Of a DNA stretch of 33,432 nt, positions 11 through 30,369 are shown in pieces (position 1 is the first letter of the stretch; every line of letters starts with the position of its first letter). The stretch comes from a virus. The stretch is from the IMG/VR virus record IMGVR_UViG_3300028592_000053, positions 1 to 33,432 of that record; one strand, 5' to 3'. Both the position numbers and the translations under genes were made by a program. A model generated the notes under the pieces. That model was not told where the DNA came from and ran no database searches. It saw only the letters and a program-made list of their open reading frames with translations.

Positions 11-1903
11 TTAAATACTGAAATCGACTCTATATTTACCACTAATAGGGGCTGTAAAAACATTTCCAGAATAAGCCCCATGAGTATCCCAAATCTTTGT
101 ATCTAGAGTAGTGATATGAGTCTCTGCTCCTGAAGTAATGGCCTGATTTCCAGATTGACGATAATCTGCAGAAATTGTTTCGGTTGCAGCGATTACGGAA
201 GGACCTGAGAGTCTTTCGATATCTACATAGACAATATTAGAGTAGTCGTCGATATCGCGAGCTAGTCCACCGTTGTCGTTTTGTTGGGCTCTAATGTTGA
301 CTTCATCTCCCGCATTCAGTTGAACTAAACAACTTCCACTGCGTTGACGATTGGTAATTTCTGAGACTGAAGCCTGCACGAGGACAGCAGCCACCGCACC
401 ATTGACGTATAATTGAACTTGTTCAAGAAACATGTCTGTATAAGAGTCCCAATGAATCGAAGTACTGACACGATAGATTCCTGAAACAGGAGCTGTGAAC
501 TTCCAGTTCGCACCGGTTGTCACGGAATTAGTCGTATCAAAAACCTTGTCATCGAAATCCACAATTTCTTCAGTCGCATGGGCAAATGAAATATTCGCAC
601 TGCTGGAGCTGATCCGATATCGAGCCGCAACAACTCGGTTCAGTGTATCATTGGACATTTGAACAGTTGAAGACCAACCGAGAATAGGAAGATTGACTCG
701 AATAAAAATTCGATCTCCAGAGGCGAAGGTAATCGGGACGGTATCCGTTAAGTTTCCACCTGCCTCAGTGAGAGGCTTGACCTGACTTGCGGTAATATAA
801 ATTATTTTGTGGGTACTTGCTTCGCCATGACCTCCGCCATCCATAATGATGGCAAAACCATCTAGCTCGCGATTATCGGCGATCGAAGTGAGTTTCGTCG
901 TATCGATTGAAAGTCCAGCAGGAAGGTTGACGGCAAGATCCGTTGCATCAGGAGCGCCGGAAAGAGTAACCTGATACCAAAGTTCAATCGTATCTCCGAC
1001 TCTTCTAAATTTTCCAAGGTAGGTGGTGTTGGTTGTCCAAGTTCCCGTGGCATTAAAGTCGGCCCAATCGGTGACAGGTGGACCATAGGCTACGGACTCA
1101 GGACCGACTGAAACGTTATCGAACTTGAAAGTCCAAGCATTCGCATTGGTCGTCGCCACGTGAAAAATCAATCGATAGCTGGTGCTATCCGCTGAGGTTT
1201 GAAAGATACCTTGAAAGCGATGTTTCGAGCCACTTCCTCCTTGAAGGGTGTAGGGAGCAGGTTGAATCAATCGAGAATTGGTAACGTCAAGGATATAGAT
1301 TCTGAGATCACTTGAATCTCCTGCAGCGAAATCGGAAGAGGGCTCATAATCGAAGGAGACTACGAGTGGCTTGGCTTGATCGGCGGAGTCGATCGTGAAA
1401 TCATAACTCACCCCTTCACCTTGTCGATCGGCTGCATCCTTGGTGATCAAACCTGATCCGGTGTCTCGAAGAGGACTCGAAGTCGTTCGAGTGATCGTAA
1501 CTGTAGGACTGCCACCAGTGCCATCGACTGGAGACGATCCAGCTGCATCTGCGTATGCAGACCATCCAGCAGCATTCACTTCAAAATCAGAATTGCCATT
1601 ATTTTTAGAAATATAATTGATGCCACCTTGACCTGAACCGCTTCCGACTTCGGCCCAAGCGACTCCGTTATAGGCGTTGATCTTATTTGTAGTGGTATTG
1701 AAGATCGTTAATCCTGTAGGAGGAGAGGAAATAGCATCTCGTTGAGTTTCAGTCATACGAGGAAAAAGCATTCCTTTGGTCGTGCTTTCGAGATCTAAAA
1801 TAGCTTTCGAATCTGGCGAACTAGTCGATCCTAACTTCAAGCCTTCGAGCATTTTTGCAACGGTTCTAACAATTAAACTATCCGTATACTGATTCAAACT
1901 CAT
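11..1903 (-). CDS. Tail fibre / adhesin protein with C1q-like domains, C-terminal domain incomplete
   Basis: A 630-residue protein, probably a tail fibre or receptor-binding subunit. The N-terminus has the phage-fibre pattern in which an ILDLESTTKGMLFPRMT stretch is followed by TGLTIFN and an YNGVAW motif. Residues about 430-560 look like a C1q/TNF-type jelly roll (APVSGIYRVSTSIHWDS), and a second copy begins near residue 580 (FTAPISGKYRVDFSI) but stops after about 50 residues at a TAA ten bases from the window edge. An upstream in-frame TTG exists at 1927, but the ATG at 1903 has AAAGGAG seven bases before it and lies clear of the preceding stop, so I use it. It is the last visible late gene. 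The C1q assignment is from pattern memory; the fibre role is inferred from position. Confidence 0.7.
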   Translation of the reverse strand: MSLNQYTDSLIVRTVAKMLEGLKLGSTSSPDSKAILDLESTTKGMLFPRMTETQRDAISSPPTGLTIFNTTTNKINAYNGVAWAEVGSGSGQGGINYISKNNGNSDFEVNAAGWSAYADAAGSSPVDGTGGSPTVTITRTTSSPLRDTGSGLITKDAADRQGEGVSYDFTIDSADQAKPLVVSFDYEPSSDFAAGDSSDLRIYILDVTNSRLIQPAPYTLQGGSGSKHRFQGIFQTSADSTSYRLIFHVATTNANAWTFKFDNVSVGPESVAYGPPVTDWADFNATGTWTTNTTYLGKFRRVGDTIELWYQVTLSGAPDATDLAVNLPAGLSIDTTKLTSIADNRELDGFAIIMDGGGHGEASTHKIIYITASQVKPLTEAGGNLTDTVPITFASGDRIFIRVNLPILGWSSTVQMSNDTLNRVVAARYRISSSSANISFAHATEEIVDFDDKVFDTTNSVTTGANWKFTAPVSGIYRVSTSIHWDSYTDMFLEQVQLYVNGAVAAVLVQASVSEITNRQRSGSCLVQLNAGDEVNIRAQQNDNGGLARDIDDYSNIVYVDIERLSGPSVIAATETISADYRQSGNQAITSGAETHITTLDTKIWDTHGAYSGNVFTAPISGKYRVDFSI

Positions 1904-1916
1904 AACATTTTCTCCT

Positions 1917-2366
1917 TTAGAAACCAAATGTCATGGCACGGAACTGCATTGTGCCTGCGTAACCTGTCCCCGACATATTGTCGGAGGTGTACTGAACCTG
2001 CCCCCCGGATGTGATGGAGAAGGTGACTCCGTCATCGTCTCCGTTCAGCTGATCAAGCAACTCCCACGTGTTGGTCAGCGTTCGATAAACAGCTGTCAGA
2101 ATTCCGCCGGACATCACTTCAACCGAATCCGTAGAACGCTTCACGCCCACGTAGATAAGCGCGAGCTGGTAGTCATCTTTGTCGAGTAAAAGACCCGTGA
2201 CGTTGGCCGCAGAAGACTGGTTATTGGCCAAAGAAAATTCTTGATTCGGGATGTAGTCTTCCCCTATAAACTGTTCGAGCAACACTCCGGCTGAACGAAG
2301 ACTGTTAAACCAACTGTACAGAAAAACTTGTCCGTTTTGTCTTATGGGTATTTCCTGGAAACTCAT
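1917..2366 (-). CDS. Tail-associated protein, short relative of the two upstream genes
   Basis: A 149-residue protein of unknown fold between the fibre gene and two duplicated tail genes. Its first 45 residues follow the same plan as both upstream products: an R-x-(N/D)-(G/D)-Q motif, an aromatic W(F/Y) pair about eight residues later, and a downstream acidic-aromatic stretch ending in PNQEF. The rest differs. The end contains GGQVQYTSDNMSGTG and is probably beta-rich. The ATG has a GGAAGAGAGG ribosome site and the gene follows its neighbour after 15 bases. A baseplate- or fibre-attachment role sharing the N-terminal docking segment is an inference from the shared N-terminus and position. Confidence 0.6.
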   Translation of the reverse strand: MSFQEIPIRQNGQVFLYSWFNSLRSAGVLLEQFIGEDYIPNQEFSLANNQSSAANVTGLLLDKDDYQLALIYVGVKRSTDSVEVMSGGILTAVYRTLTNTWELLDQLNGDDDGVTFSITSGGQVQYTSDNMSGTGYAGTMQFRAMTFGF

Positions 2367-17171: not shown

Positions 17172-18678
17172 TTACCAGTTTAAATCGACGGTCCCCTCGG
17201 GATCGCTCGCCACAGGAGGCTGGGCTTCCTCGGTGGGCTGGGCCATGGAGTCCGTATATTCCCCATCTTGAGCGCCTGCCAGAGCATTGACACCACCGGA
17301 CAAAGTATCCACTTGGTCCTTCTTGCCCTCGGGGAAGTTCTCACACTCCGTGAGAAAGTCCTCGTTCCAGTTGCCTCGGAGCAGGACAATGTTTCCATTC
17401 TCGGCTTGAGCGGAGGCCGGCTTGGCTCGGGTGACTTTGTCCGCAGCGGGACGAGGGAACTTCAAGTCATACCCACGCAGGAGTTTGGTGTAGGTATTCT
17501 TCTCCGCTACTCCTGCCTGTCCGGGATCCATTTCGAGATGCACTTCCACGCCGACGCCGTCCTGTTGGGCCATTCTCTTGATCGCCTCCTCCACTTTCGC
17601 CGGGGTGTTCCGGAACCGAACGACGTGAAGCACGTAGAAGCGTTCGTCCGTACCGAGCCCGATTTTGGTCCCGACGGTCCAATCGGGATCGGGGTTCTGA
17701 GGATTGGGAAGGGTGGCCGCACGGTCCCAGTACCGAATCACACGCTTCAGGGGGGGGTGGGCTTCCTGCACCGGGAACCATTCCCGACGGAACAGGGTTC
17801 CGGCCGTGGCCTTGATGTTCCAGTTGCCGAACTTGAGCTGCATCCGATCCACATAGGGAAGGGCATCCAGGTTGGCTGCGTAGGCTGGGTCTTCCTGCAT
17901 GAAAATCTGATTGTCCTCCAACTTGGCCGGGATGAAGGTGAAGGACTTCGGAATCTGTTTGTCTCCGTAGGTGGCGAGCAACTCTTGAGGGGTGTCGGCC
18001 CAGTGGAGTTCGTCGTTCACCCGGATGAACCAGCGAATGACCCCGGCTCGTTCGGGGATGGCGTAGCCGCTTTCCTTGTCGATCCACCAGTCCACCAGTC
18101 CGCGCACCCAGCTTTCGGAGTCCGCGTTGCAGGTGGCTCGGATGTAGCCCGGCACCCCGGAAGTGGAACGGTTTCGGGAGAGCATGTACCAGAACTGTCC
18201 CGAGGTGAAGTGGGTCAGCTCCTCGAACTGGATGAGCGGGATCTGGGTACCTTGCCAGTCGTACTTGTTCTTCTCGTACTCCATGTGGGCAAACTGGATC
18301 TTCATCCCGGTCCGGTACCGGAATTCGAGCGTACTCGGGGTGGAAATGAATCCCCCCACCTTGGCATAGACCGAGGTGGCCGAATCCCAGAGGGCACCGG
18401 TGTTCCGAATCTGCTTGGTCGTTCGTCGAAAGGTGACCGAACTGAATTCCGAGTTCTTGAGGTGCCTCAAGGGTTCGAGCAGACTGCCATAGGTCTTGCC
18501 TCCTTCAACCCCCTGCCGCGCCACCGTACAATGCAATATCAGCGGTGGTTGATAGGAACATTGTCTGTGGACCGGGTTGAGGTTTAAGCTCAATTTTCGG
18601 CAGAGGAATACCCTCCTTTCTCTTTGGACCATCTCGGATGAGGGTTTCCTTTTTTAAATCGGGTCTGCGAAGGAACAC
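17172..18678 (-). CDS. Terminase large subunit, reading frame interrupted in the Walker A motif
   Basis: The packaging ATPase/nuclease. Downstream of 18506 the frame encodes GGKTYGSLLEPLRH, an RRTTKQIRNTGALWDSAT segment, Walker B-like LIQFEELTHF, YMLSRNRSTSGVPGYIRATC, and the nuclease part (YWDRAAT, DWTVGTKIG, EMDPGQAGV). Upstream of 18508 that frame is nonsense, whereas the +1-shifted frame is open from a GTG at 18678 and encodes PQPGPQTMFLSTTADIALYG followed by GAAGG, the canonical terminase lead-in, then meets TGA at 18507-18505. Removing seven bases would restore GAAGGGKT exactly. So the gene is either mutated, mis-sequenced, or frameshifted (+1) at the TGA. The ribosome site of the GTG is poor; CTG at 18603 behind AAGGAGGG is another possible start. 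Confidence 0.85.
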
Positions 18679-21966: not shown

Positions 21967-22878
21967 ATGAAAATCACAAATGGATTTGTTGGTGGGTTGG
22001 TCGTTTTGTTGGGAGTCGGATTTCCTGTGTTAGGAGCTGCGAAGATCACGCCGAAGGGAATGAGCGCCGTCCACTTGGCTCATCAGCCTTCTCCTCAACC
22101 GTCTCCCAAGCAGGAGAGTCCCGAGGAAGCCTCCAAGCCGAAGCCCTTTTACCTCCCTTTGGACGAAATTATCCCTGTGGAGGAACAAAATAAGATCGAA
22201 CGTAAGCGCACCCAGAAGTCGATTCAGACCTCTGAAGGATTGGGTTCGGATCGAACGGTCGACTTCTCCCAGTTCAACACCGGGATCATCAATCAGTATC
22301 GCGGAGACTGCACCGCTCAGGCGATGGCCGGTGGCATGGAGAATAAACTCCGTCAAAGTGTTGACACTTCTGCCGACGTTTCGCAGGAGTCGCTCTGGGC
22401 TTGGTACCGACAACCTTCCGTCTATGCAGCCGTAAACACCGCACAGAAGACCTGGGTGAAGCGTGAATCCGCTTGGCCATTTGGTGCTCGCAGCTTCAAG
22501 CTGCCCGAGGAGCGCGGTCTGTATCGTGCGGATCAAATCGAATACCTTGGGGATTATTACACACCGGGGATTAAACAGAAAATTATTGCATCGCTCGACC
22601 AGCGGAATCCCGTCTATTGGGGTGGGTCCGTCAACCAGGACATGGCTTCCTGCTTTGTGAACATTCGGGCCAACGTTCCTCAGACCAACGGAGGTCACTC
22701 TGTTCCGTTCACCGGCTACAAAGTGAGCAAGGGTGTGCTCTGGACCAAGTTGAAGCAGAGTTGGGGAAAAAACTGCGGAGACGGTGGATACCAGTGGTTC
22801 AACATCGACTCTTGCGCGAATGGGTATTGTCTGTTTTGGTCAGTGAAGAAAGTTTCAATGAGAGGGGAAGCAAAATGA
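21967..22878 (+). CDS. Secreted papain-like (C1) cysteine protease
   Basis: A 303-residue protein with an N-terminal signal peptide (hydrophobic residues 7-24, likely cut near A24-A25), a Pro/Ser/Glu linker (40-62) and a C1-type peptidase domain from about residue 95. The oxyanion Gln and nucleophile are in INQYRGDCTAQAM (Q110, C115), the catalytic His is in NGGHSVPFTGY (H244), and the third position is QSWGKNCGDGGYQWF, where papain has NSWG; the usual Asn is Gln here (Q264). Several extra Cys fit an extracytoplasmic protein. It starts a plus-strand operon and overlaps the next gene by four bases (ATGA). A role at lysis, entry or host surface change is inference. Confidence 0.75.
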   Translation: MKITNGFVGGLVVLLGVGFPVLGAAKITPKGMSAVHLAHQPSPQPSPKQESPEEASKPKPFYLPLDEIIPVEEQNKIERKRTQKSIQTSEGLGSDRTVDFSQFNTGIINQYRGDCTAQAMAGGMENKLRQSVDTSADVSQESLWAWYRQPSVYAAVNTAQKTWVKRESAWPFGARSFKLPEERGLYRADQIEYLGDYYTPGIKQKIIASLDQRNPVYWGGSVNQDMASCFVNIRANVPQTNGGHSVPFTGYKVSKGVLWTKLKQSWGKNCGDGGYQWFNIDSCANGYCLFWSVKKVSMRGEAK

Positions 22879-27984: not shown

Positions 27985-28023
27985 CATGCCTCGACTTGGG
28001 CAAAAACGCTCGCGAAATCGTCA
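27985..28023. repeat. Intergenic repeat copy B
   Basis: CATGCCTCGACTTGGG (27985-28000), then CAAAAACGCTCGCGAAATCG and TCA, matching copy A at 21681-21720. It ends on the stop codon of the glycosyltransferase gene, as copy A does on its gene. Sharing 16 exact bases plus the position suggests a regulatory site. Confidence 0.75.
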
Positions 28024-28785
28024 GGAGCCCTTACTTTTTTTAAACAAAGACCAATGAATCTTACAGTCGACCCTTCCATCGGGCTTAATTTGCTTTTCTA
28101 CGATCCCTGGCCAGAGTTCGCACATCCGTTCTACCGCTTGGACTTCCCTTCCAGACTGAGCGTAGACGTCCTTTAACCCCCCCTCGTTTGACCCGTTTTT
28201 AGGTGCGGCGAACCCGAACCGGGACGCCCTGGCCGTGCAGAGCCCACTGGCCAGGATTTGCAGGGTGAAGTCTCGGTCCTCTTTTAAATCCACCATGGGA
28301 CGATAATTAATGTGGAACGTGCGCTTGACATTGATGAAGACGGCGACGTCGCAATAGGAGTTGAAGACGAGGTTCTTCTTCGCGCTCCATGAGAATTGTT
28401 GATATTCCAAGGCGCCCTGGCCCAGGTCTGGACAGGATTGAAAAAGCTGGGTCGCTTCTTCGAGAACGAATCCGAAAGTCTTCTTTACGTTCTTAGTTCC
28501 CACCTGTTGGCTCATGGAGGAAATATCGTCGTCCAACATCCAATACCATTCGGATGAACTGGCTCGGGCAAATTGGAGGATAGAGTTCCGCACAAACCCA
28601 ATTCCTTTATTGCTCTGGCTGAGTATGAGCCAATTGATTTCTTGATTAGGGTAGGCTCTCTGGTAACTGGACGCCTCTTGAGGCTCGACCACCACAAAGA
28701 ATGGAATGCCTTCCTTGATCAGATTTTCAATGGTTTTTGACTTTCCAGCGCGTCCCTTCGAAGGAACGTAAATCGGGGGTAGCAT
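28021..28785 (-). CDS. TAGT-type DNA base glycosyltransferase
   Basis: A 254-residue GT-A fold enzyme. It opens with YVPSKGRAGKSKTIENL, has VVVEPQEASSYQRAYPNQEI, a GIGFVRNSILQFA helix, and the metal-binding acidic triplet in YWMLDDDIS (D85-D87), matching the TET-associated glycosyltransferase family of phages. The likely job is to transfer a sugar to an oxidised pyrimidine (5-hydroxymethylcytosine) in phage DNA. The start ATG overlaps the dioxygenase stop by one base (TAATG). It completes a ParB-TET-TAGT cassette. The donor sugar is not predictable. Confidence 0.75.
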   Translation of the reverse strand: MLPPIYVPSKGRAGKSKTIENLIKEGIPFFVVVEPQEASSYQRAYPNQEINWLILSQSNKGIGFVRNSILQFARASSSEWYWMLDDDISSMSQQVGTKNVKKTFGFVLEEATQLFQSCPDLGQGALEYQQFSWSAKKNLVFNSYCDVAVFINVKRTFHINYRPMVDLKEDRDFTLQILASGLCTARASRFGFAAPKNGSNEGGLKDVYAQSGREVQAVERMCELWPGIVEKQIKPDGRVDCKIHWSLFKKSKGS

Positions 28786-29606
28786 TATAGGTCATCCCTT
28801 TCTGTTTGGAGCCGCTTCTCTTCGCGGGCTTTTTTCACGGTGCGAATTCTCTGCACTTCCTCATGGATCGGCAAGCAATTACACATCTGTTGTAGAGCGT
28901 AAAAGACGATGGAATATCGGTAAGCAAACTGAGTCTTCCGAATAATCTGGGTCACCCCATGGAGGTGCTTCTGGCCATCAAAAATGAGATAATGGCCGTC
29001 CTGCAAGTCGAGTCTTAAGTCGAACTCAGGCAAGGAAAGCATGCCTCCTCCAATGTCCTTTCTCAGCACCAGCATGCAGCTCATGCAGTCCCGGAAGTTC
29101 CCACTGTCGAGGTGGTACTTCAGCGAATTGTTCTGGTTGATGATCCCACTCGTGAAGACGGTCTTCGGAATTCTCCACTCTTCGCGGACTTCTTGGAGGA
29201 CCAGGTCCTCGTGGTGCTTGTAAACTTCGGGTGCCCAGAGGGAATAGAGCTGAGTGAACTGAACCCCAAAATCACAGATCAATTTATGCTCATTTGGGTG
29301 ATCCAGGGAGAGCGACGTGGCCGAGCAAAAATCTCCTCGCATCACCCTCCTGGGTCGAAACCCAAAGATCCGAGATTCGGTCTTCAATCCGGAAGTGCGA
29401 TCACTCTTCTGGTATTTGATCGACTTACAGGCCTGACGAATGGCCGAGAGATCTCCCTCGTACTTGCCATAAATCATGACTACTTTTCCATCGAGATGGA
29501 AGACCGTCGGTTCTGTAATGATTTCGAAAGTGTCAGTCTCCAGAGCTGACTTCTTCATCAACTCCTTCTTGCTCACTTCCCTCCACTTTAAGTTCACCTG
29601 TTTCAT
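28785..29606 (-). CDS. TET/JBP-type 2-oxoglutarate/Fe(II) dioxygenase
   Basis: A 273-residue oxygenase. Metal residues lie in LKYHLDSGNF (H165 and D167) and HLHGVTQI (H216), and the 2-oxoglutarate-binding Arg in FAYRYSIVFYAL (R230). The RKDIGGGMLSLPEFDLRL block between them is the GG-x-L-x-x-P turn of JBP/TET enzymes. TETs oxidise 5-methylcytosine to 5-hydroxymethylcytosine in DNA. The ATG has GGAGAGG upstream and overlaps the ParB-like gene by 74 bases. No cytosine-5 methyltransferase gene is found in this window, so the methyl donor enzyme must lie elsewhere or be host-encoded. Confidence 0.8.
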   Translation of the reverse strand: MKQVNLKWREVSKKELMKKSALETDTFEIITEPTVFHLDGKVVMIYGKYEGDLSAIRQACKSIKYQKSDRTSGLKTESRIFGFRPRRVMRGDFCSATSLSLDHPNEHKLICDFGVQFTQLYSLWAPEVYKHHEDLVLQEVREEWRIPKTVFTSGIINQNNSLKYHLDSGNFRDCMSCMLVLRKDIGGGMLSLPEFDLRLDLQDGHYLIFDGQKHLHGVTQIIRKTQFAYRYSIVFYALQQMCNCLPIHEEVQRIRTVKKAREEKRLQTERDDL

Positions 29607-30369
29607 ATTGCCTCTCCGTCATTTCAATCAGAGTTCTGAACAGGGCACTGAAGTCTTCCAGCTTCAAACAGTTCAACAAATAGTTCGCCCTGCGCAGGGT
29701 ATCTTCGAATTCGTATCCCTCGTAGTAGAGCACAATTTGTTTAATATTGGAGGACAAATAGGTTTTTCTGGTCTCATCCATGCGGCTCTCGTCCGCAGCT
29801 CGGGCAGGCACTGGTTGAGGCACCACGCCAGACGCCAAGCTAGCCTCGTTCGGATCTGCTCCGGGGATGGGTGCAGGGTTCTGCGAAGGCACGGTGGGGT
29901 CCGGCAAAACCGGGTCCTTGAAGAACTCGAACTTGAAGCTTTCATTGTCCATCGGAAGATGGAAGTCATCCAGCTCGTCGATGTGAATTTTCCCTTCTTC
30001 CATGAACTCATAAAGTCCTTGGCGGTCCAGCGTTCCATATTGGCTGATGTCTTGAAGAACCCTCCGCCGGGCTCCTGCAGGGTCTTTGGCTCCCACGATG
30101 ACAATCGGAAGCTTGGGGATTTCGAAATCCATTTCATCCCGCATATAGGTCAGCGTGCGCTTACGTTGGGTTCCGGCCACAATCCATTTTTTACCGGCTT
30201 TGTCGATCCAAACATGAATGGGAAAGGCGTAGCCAGTTTCCTTGATTTGCTTGGCCATCGCTTCGAAGTTTTCACGCGTGAGGCTTTTCAGGTCTTTTTG
30301 TAGAACATGGAGCTCATCCAAATCAGCGAACTCCGTCAATCCTTGACAGTCGATTTTAATCGTTTCCAT
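29533..30369 (-). CDS. ParB-like nuclease-domain protein of the modification cassette
   Basis: A 278-residue protein. Residues 15-110 resemble the ParB N-terminal domain: LHVLQKDLKSLTRENFEAMA, FPIHVWIDKAGKKWIVAGTQ and RKRTLTYM, where the last corresponds to the GxRR box, here GTQRKRT. An Asp/Pro-rich linker (160-205) and a helical end (EGYEFEDTLRRANYLLNCLK) follow. ParB-fold proteins accompany phage TET/TAGT operons, possibly guiding them to DNA. It is the first gene of the cassette, with GGAGGGGG before the ATG and a hairpin in its leader. Confidence 0.7.
   Translation of the reverse strand: METIKIDCQGLTEFADLDELHVLQKDLKSLTRENFEAMAKQIKETGYAFPIHVWIDKAGKKWIVAGTQRKRTLTYMRDEMDFEIPKLPIVIVGAKDPAGARRRVLQDISQYGTLDRQGLYEFMEEGKIHIDELDDFHLPMDNESFKFEFFKDPVLPDPTVPSQNPAPIPGADPNEASLASGVVPQPVPARAADESRMDETRKTYLSSNIKQIVLYYEGYEFEDTLRRANYLLNCLKLEDFSALFRTLIEMTERQYETGELKVEGSEQEGVDEEVSSGD

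What the first reader, a model, noticed from the sequence alone, without database searches (positions are those of the whole stretch)
28021..30369. TET dioxygenase, TAGT glycosyltransferase and ParB-like protein form a DNA hypermodification cassette
The three genes are overlapping and co-oriented. HxD...H...R residues in the dioxygenase and the DDD of the glycosyltransferase are intact. In characterised phages, cytosine is methylated, oxidised by TET and then glycosylated to evade restriction. No cytosine-5 methyltransferase is seen in this 33 kb, so either it lies elsewhere or the oxygenase works on a different base or on host-made methylcytosine. Substrate, sequence context and sugar are all open.
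Basis: partly seen in the sequence, partly recalled or inferred. Interest (0 to 1): 0.9.

Follow-up and report, generated by a model that had tools for sequence, protein, structure and literature searches.

The report
Phage DNA-sugar cassette, probably on thymine
A phage carries three overlapping genes that probably tag its own DNA by oxidising the methyl group of a base, most likely thymine and not cytosine as first read, and attaching a sugar to it; the cassette belongs to a widespread known type, but which base it modifies has not been shown for this combination.

Summary
On the minus strand a ParB-like gene (29533-30369), a TET/JBP dioxygenase (28785-29606) and a TAGT glycosyltransferase (28021-28785) overlap, with catalytic residues intact. 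AlphaFold models (pLDDT 94 and 91) match NgTET1/TET2 and GT-A glycosyltransferases. ParB-TET-glycosyltransferase is a recurrent cassette: ParB lies beside 43 of 44 well-flanked TETs of this clade.

The cytosine reading is not supported as stated. C5-methyltransferases (canonical or compact 'SPPC' type) occur in only 3 of the 50 clade-set relative records and not in the window. In both phage TET clades, TAGT alternates with the kinase / aGPT-PPlase / ADDT genes known from thymidine hypermodification (both present in 1 of 92 loci). These swaps need 14-15 changes on the TET tree, with no residue in the TET separating the two groups. The histidine that contacts 5mC in NgTet1/TET2 is Leu238 here. 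Most likely: ParB-associated TET hydroxylates thymine (to 5hmU) and TAGT adds a sugar, a base-J-like product (about 0.6).

Against: four clade loci, close to the window, carry a compact C5-methyltransferase in or near the operon, and the record may be incomplete; 5mC remains about 0.33. It is a new member of a known kind.

The parts
29533..30369 (-). ParB-like protein (278 aa): N-terminal ParB-CTPase-type domain without a recognisable HTH; conserved C-terminal block (..NIKQIVLYYEGYEFED..); first gene of the cassette
   Evidence: phrog_498/723
28785..29606 (-). TET/JBP-type Fe(II)/2OG dioxygenase (273 aa), inferred 5-methylpyrimidine (probably thymine) hydroxylase
   Evidence: PF12851 above cut-off; AF2 pLDDT 94.3, Foldseek NgTET1/CcTet/TET2
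29106..29114 (-). HxD Fe(II)-binding motif H165-L-D167 of the TET
   Evidence: alignment
29097..29099 (-). Asn170, at the position of TET2 N1387 / NgTet1 D234
   Evidence: HMMER alignments to PDB sequences; residue roles from general knowledge of the structures
28959..28961 (-). His216, third Fe ligand
28917..28919 (-). Arg230, 2-oxoglutarate-binding arginine
28893..28895 (-). Leu238, at the position of the 5mC-contacting NgTet1 H297 / TET2 H1904
28021..28785 (-). TAGT, TET-associated glycosyltransferase (254 aa), GT-A fold
   Evidence: PF20691 above cut-off; AF2 pLDDT 91.4, Foldseek GT-A enzymes
28525..28533 (-). D85-D86-D87 nucleotide-sugar/metal-binding motif of the TAGT
   Evidence: sequence; conservation

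Best explanation
The cassette modifies the phage's own DNA after replication. The TET/JBP enzyme hydroxylates the 5-methyl group of a pyrimidine in DNA, most likely thymine, giving 5-hydroxymethyluracil. The TAGT then transfers a sugar from a nucleotide-sugar donor to that hydroxymethyl group, giving a glycosyl-5hmU (a base-J-like product). The ParB-like protein, whose gene almost always precedes the TET in this clade, probably acts as its DNA-loading or site-selection partner rather than in partition. The product would shield the DNA from host nucleases. Shown here: gene order, families, folds, intact catalytic residues, conservation of the cassette, alternation of TAGT with 5hmU-pathway genes, rarity of C5-methyltransferases. 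Inferred: thymine as the base, sugar transfer to it, the ParB role, protection. Unknown: sugar and sequence context.
For: (1) In isolated phages the nearest TETs (32-38% identity) sit in ParB-TET operons with ADDT (PF18724), aGPT-PPlase and P-loop kinase (PF18751). The literature calls such an operon thymidine hypermodification (PMC11955845), and 5hmdU DNA kinase acts on 5hmU (PMC6449724). (2) In 92 well-flanked loci TAGT and these genes exclude each other: N clade 32 vs 6 with 1 both, D clade 22 vs 24 with 0 both; Fisher p=2e-16, not corrected for relatedness. The tree needs 14-15 switches and well-supported branches force at least 9-10; Kharcho (kinase) and Bolt007 (TAGT) are sisters. (3) No TET residue separates TAGT-linked from kinase/ADDT-linked members, which suggests one substrate base. 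The window's TAGT resembles those paired with the other TET clade (37-42%) more than most of those of its own (about 15-23%). (4) PF00145 hits in 3/50 and 4/50 relative records, 0/10 complete isolates; compact SPPC methyltransferase in 1 of 51. Bolt007 and P12024L carry TET plus TAGT without either. (5) The histidine contacting 5mC in NgTet1/TET2 aligns with Leu238, and Leu/Met/Ile occurs across the clade including the kinase/ADDT-linked members. (6) No thymidylate-synthase-type hydroxymethylase in 13 records tested, so the TET is the likely source of the hydroxymethyl group.
Against: A compact SSPPC C5-methyltransferase follows the TET directly in L084, L087 and L091 and lies upstream of the operon in L071. 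These are in the subclade next to the window's, which has no kinase/ADDT members. Asn170 matches TET2 N1387, a 5mC contact. TETs can act on both 5mC and T. The record may be incomplete. Published phage TET biochemistry is on cytosine (Burke et al. 2021, seen only as cited in PMC12730594 and PMC11404850). Glycosylated 5hmU had not been reported in phages as of 2019 (PMC6449724).
Confidence: 0.6

Rival explanations
1. Cytosine pathway: a C5-methyltransferase encoded outside this record, or by the host, makes 5mC; the TET oxidises it to 5hmC and the TAGT glycosylates it, with ParB helping target the TET.
For: Published precedent for phage C5-MTase + TET + glycosyltransferase (as cited in PMC12730594). 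Compact C5-MTase genes directly beside TET in L084/L087/L091 and near it in L071 (N clade) and in L120/L127/L146/L018 (D clade). Asn170 equals TET2 N1387. The record may be a fragment.
Against: C5-MTases in only 3/50 and 4/50 relative records and 0/10 complete isolates, including TET+TAGT isolates Bolt007 and P12024L and the 46-kb and 64-kb records nearest by TAGT. TAGT is interchangeable with 5hmU-pathway genes. Leu238 replaces the 5mC-contacting histidine.
Confidence: 0.33
2. The TET accepts both 5mC and T, or another methylated base such as 6mA as CcTet does, and the ParB-like protein rather than the active site decides which sites are modified.
For: CcTet acts on 5mC and 6mA (PMC12730594) and is among the best structural matches. 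The same TET clade sits beside 5hmU-pathway genes in some loci and C5-MTases in a few others.
Against: A downstream glycosyltransferase needs a stable hydroxymethyl group, which fits 5-methylpyrimidines and not 6mA. There is no direct evidence for dual use in one phage.
Confidence: 0.05
3. The ParB-like protein is an ordinary partition or regulatory protein that merely neighbours a TET-TAGT pair.
For: Its N-terminal domain is of the ParB/Noc CTPase type.
Against: It is beside the TET in 43 of 44 well-flanked N-clade loci, same strand in 88 of 88 and upstream in 86; no HTH domain was found; the C-terminal block is shared across cassettes.
Confidence: 0.05

Closest known systems
Arthrobacter phage Bolt007 ParB-TET-TAGT-PIG-L operon (OP985600, L028)
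   Same: Same gene order ParB, TET, TAGT-like glycosyltransferase, same N/L TET clade, no C5-methyltransferase and no P-loop kinase
   Different: Adds a PIG-L-type deacetylase (suggesting an N-acetyl sugar), has two small ORFs between ParB and TET, and its GT is only 26% identical and below the Pfam TAGT cut-off; not biochemically characterised as far as I found
Actinophage ParB-TET-kinase/ADDT/aGPT-PPlase modules (LilMcDreamy, Tonitrus, Prince, LittleMunchkin)
   Same: ParB directly upstream of an N/L-clade TET, about 30-34% identity over the aligned full-length TET
   Different: The hydroxymethyl group is predicted to be phosphorylated and aminoacyl-modified, not glycosylated
Nonlabens phage P12024L TET-TAGT (NC_018272)
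   Same: TET followed by a TAGT 41% identical to the window's; complete genome without PF00145 or SPPC C5-MTase
   Different: TET of the D/R clade, no ParB in the cassette, an N6/N4-type methyltransferase follows
Phage C5-MTase/TET/glycosyltransferase cytosine hypermodification (Burke et al. 2021, known here from citing papers)
   Same: TET-family oxidation followed by glycosylation
   Different: Requires a C5-methyltransferase, not found here
Kinetoplastid base J pathway (JBP1/2 + JGT)
   Same: TET/JBP hydroxylase plus glucosyltransferase; the proposed chemistry on thymine
   Different: Eukaryotic; JBP1 carries a J-DNA-binding domain instead of a ParB partner; homology of TAGT to JGT not tested here

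Membership tests
TET/JBP dioxygenase (PF12851) | Profile match above the curated cut-off | tested here: met
   50.2 bits vs 34.9
TET/JBP dioxygenase (PF12851) | HxD...H Fe(II) ligands and 2OG arginine | tested here: met
   H165, D167, H216, R230, conserved in 192-193 of 194 relatives
TET/JBP dioxygenase (PF12851) | TET/JBP fold | tested here: met
   AF2 pLDDT 94.3; Foldseek NgTET1, CcTet and TET2 are the top matches
TET/JBP dioxygenase (PF12851) | Oxidation of a 5-methylpyrimidine in DNA | not testable with these tools
   needs biochemistry
TAGT glycosyltransferase (PF20691) | Profile match above the curated cut-off | tested here: met
   86.2 bits vs 27.5
TAGT glycosyltransferase (PF20691) | GT-A fold with acidic DxD-like motif | tested here: met
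   DDD 85-87; Foldseek GT-A enzymes
TAGT glycosyltransferase (PF20691) | Genomic association with TET/JBP | tested here: met
   adjacent here; TAGT found in 31/50 and 21/50 TET-bearing relative records
C5-cytosine hypermodification (C5-MTase + TET + GT) | Phage-encoded C5-methyltransferase | tested here: not met
   absent from the 33.4-kb record; the record may be incomplete
Thymidine hypermodification (5hmU-derived) | 5hmU DNA kinase / aGPT-PPlase / ADDT | tested here: not met
   no PF18751 in the record and no ADDT, aGPT-PPlase or kinase within 7 kb of the TET by own profiles; TAGT stands in their place, as in about 30 well-flanked relatives of the clade
Thymidine hypermodification (5hmU-derived) | 5hmU in DNA | not testable with these tools
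   needs LC-MS
Canonical ParB partition protein | ParB-CTPase domain | tested here: met
   family profile to Noc/ParB structures E~1e-14; the single sequence is below the Pfam cut-off
Canonical ParB partition protein | HTH DNA-binding domain | tested here: not met
   no HTH match in the Pfam scan; the profile-to-structure match covers only the N-terminal domain

The most novel reading that the evidence does not exclude
A phage form of base J: ParB-associated, site-selective hydroxylation of thymine in DNA followed by glycosylation, giving glycosyl-5hmU in virion DNA, with ParB-CTPase proteins as general targeting or loading partners of phage TET enzymes.
Probability: 0.4. Interest if true: 0.8.

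Novelty: new member of a known kind. Interest (0 to 1): 0.45.

Why it matters
Phage TETs are mostly discussed as cytosine enzymes. The comparative data here suggest that two large phage TET clades feed interchangeable decoration modules, and that for the window's clade the base is more likely thymine, so many annotated 'TET/TAGT cytosine' cassettes may really make glycosylated 5hmU. As of a 2019 paper (PMC6449724) that base had not been reported in phages. It would be a bacterial counterpart of base J, a possible obstacle to host nucleases, and a source of enzymes that write on thymine in DNA. The near-constant ParB partner makes the question of how such enzymes choose sites testable.

Tried and rejected
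Single-protein scans of IMG/VR for the window's TET found nothing, and its TAGT only two loci; alignment-based scans were needed. Nucleotide search in phages: no match. The Iyer 2013, Burke 2021 and Lee 2021 papers are not held, so they are cited only through other papers. Canonical C5-MTase as the missing partner: rejected for this record, but I found that PF00145 detects compact SPPC methyltransferases only partly, so a separate profile was built; it also found none in the window. A TET residue separating TAGT-linked from kinase/ADDT-linked members: none found. I did not find a clade of TETs with frequent C5-MTases to use as a positive control. PF00303 hydroxymethylase as a pool-level source of 5hmU: no match. 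Host assignment: not resolved (nearest large terminases are from Rhizobium phages and Methanoculleus viruses at 46-48%; the nearest cellular TET locus is in an Ignavibacteria MAG).

Full report
Observation. The three ORFs are real and where stated. Transcribed leftwards they are ParB-like (30369-29533), TET/JBP (29606-28785) and TAGT (28785-28021). ParB and TET overlap by 74 nt, and a purine-rich stretch (GGAGAGG) precedes the TET ATG; TET and TAGT overlap as TAATG. Pfam places the TET and the TAGT above curated cut-offs; the ParB-like protein is below its cut-off when scanned alone. As a family, however, 29 of 38 homologues match ParB_N, and the family profile hits Noc/ParB structures at E~1e-14 over the N-terminal domain only. 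AlphaFold models are confident (pLDDT 94.3 and 91.4). Foldseek puts the TET on NgTET1, CcTet and TET2 and the TAGT on GT-A glycosyltransferases.

The genome. The window is an IMG/VR record of 33,432 bases that may be a fragment. Portal, large terminase, head protease, major head protein and tail tape-measure genes are present. No canonical C5-methyltransferase, compact SPPC-type methyltransferase, Ploopntkinase3 or thymidylate-synthase-type hydroxymethylase was found in it.

Relatives. The nearest TETs in isolated phages are actinophage enzymes annotated 'oxidoreductase', 'queuine tRNA-ribosyltransferase' or, in one record, 'thymidine hydroxylase'. They follow a ParB-like gene and are followed by ADDT, aGPT-PPlase and/or P-loop kinase genes. 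The Tonitrus cluster is described in print as a thymidine hypermodification system (PMC11955845). Bolt007 instead has ParB, TET, a TAGT-like GT and a PIG-L deacetylase, the same logic as the window.

Two TET clades. 194 TET ORFs from 191 loci fall into an N/L clade (HxDxxN, and Leu/Met/Ile two residues after the conserved Tyr; includes the window and the actinophages) and a D/R clade (HxDxxD and Arg; includes P12024L). In loci with at least 3 kb on both sides, ParB is within 4 kb of 43 of 44 N-clade TETs. TAGT and the kinase/aGPT-PPlase/ADDT set are almost mutually exclusive: N clade 32 TAGT only, 6 the other only, 1 both; D clade 22, 24, 0 (Fisher p=2e-16 overall, not corrected for relatedness). 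On a maximum-likelihood tree the labels need 14-15 changes, at least 9-10 forced by well-supported branches, and sister pairs with different modules exist (Kharcho with a kinase, Bolt007 with TAGT). No TET position separates the two groups within the N clade. Other loci use other glycosyltransferases or an FkbM-type methyltransferase in the same place. So one TET product is decorated by exchangeable modules. Because the kinase route is known on 5hmU (PMC6449724), the shared product is most simply 5hmU.

C5-methyltransferases. PF00145 was found in 3 of 50 N-set and 4 of 50 D-set records and in 0 of 10 complete isolates. Inspection showed that several of these hits are compact proteins of about 215 residues with an SSPPC motif. 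An SPPC motif is also described for the C5-carboxymethyltransferases of PMC12783734. A dedicated profile found the compact type near TET in eight of the fetched loci, directly after the TET in three N-clade loci (L084, L087, L091) and 3 kb upstream of it in L071, but in only one of 51 whole records tested and not in the window. These loci belong to the subclade next to the window's and are the best evidence for the cytosine rival.

Active site. Profile alignments to NgTet1 and TET2 place the window's Leu238 on NgTet1 H297 / TET2 H1904 and Asn170 on D234 / N1387. From established knowledge of those structures, the histidine contacts the polar edge of 5mC. Its replacement is compatible with thymine but is not proof, since Asn can pair with either base and no authentic JBP sequence was available to compare.

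Mechanism. Best explanation (0.6): ParB-associated TET hydroxylates thymine in phage DNA and TAGT adds a sugar, a base-J-like product that would shield the genome. That the cassette oxidises and glycosylates some 5-methylpyrimidine in DNA I put at about 0.9. The cytosine route is at 0.33. The ParB role as targeting or loading partner is inferred from near-constant, strand-consistent upstream linkage and the missing HTH domain.

Novelty. The kind of system is known: TAGT is a named Pfam family, TET-linked pathways were predicted by Iyer et al. 2013 and cytosine examples reported by Burke et al. 2021 (both known here only through citing papers), and Bolt007 has the same architecture. The window is a new member. 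What would be new is proof of glycosylated 5hmU in a phage: the 2019 paper states that it had not been reported (PMC6449724), and my literature searches found no later report, although the library held is partial.

Noticed in passing
N- and D-clade loci, e.g. L002, L027, L033, L042; not the window: TET modification cassettes lie within 4 kb upstream of the large terminase in 40 of 67 N-clade and 48 of 65 D-clade loci with enough flank, across actinophages, a cyanophage and environmental contigs. In the window the terminase (17172-18632) is about 10 kb from the TET. Reason unknown.
   Followed up: partly
L056, 3886-11693 (327-kb record): One cluster holds two TET and three ParB-like genes plus a kinase and an aGPT-PPlase/ADDT-like gene, suggesting that each TET may have its own ParB.
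   Followed up: no
L084 2461-3117, L087, L091, L071, L120, L127, L146, L018: Compact (about 215 aa) SSPPC-motif C5-methyltransferase-like proteins near TET genes, only partly detected by PF00145.
   Followed up: partly
L002 3761-4333 (LilMcDreamy gene 5) and L025 1592-2176 (MementoMori gene 3): Genes annotated 'terminase small subunit' match the P-loop kinase PF18751 (E=6e-73 and 8e-23), so the annotation is probably wrong; 'queuine tRNA-ribosyltransferase' for the TETs and 'DNA glycosylase' for the ADDT-matching gene of Prince likewise.
   Followed up: yes
L191 1843-4221 (Ignavibacteria MAG): A ParB-TAGT-TET cassette (TET 45% identical) on a contig binned as a bacterial genome, possibly a prophage or a mis-binned phage.
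   Followed up: partly
window 11-1927, minus strand: A 638-aa protein next to the tail genes with a C1q-type domain, probably a tail or receptor-binding protein.
   Followed up: no
window 21967-22878, plus strand: A papain-like peptidase domain just under the Pfam cut-off, in a plus-strand block between minus-strand operons.
   Followed up: no
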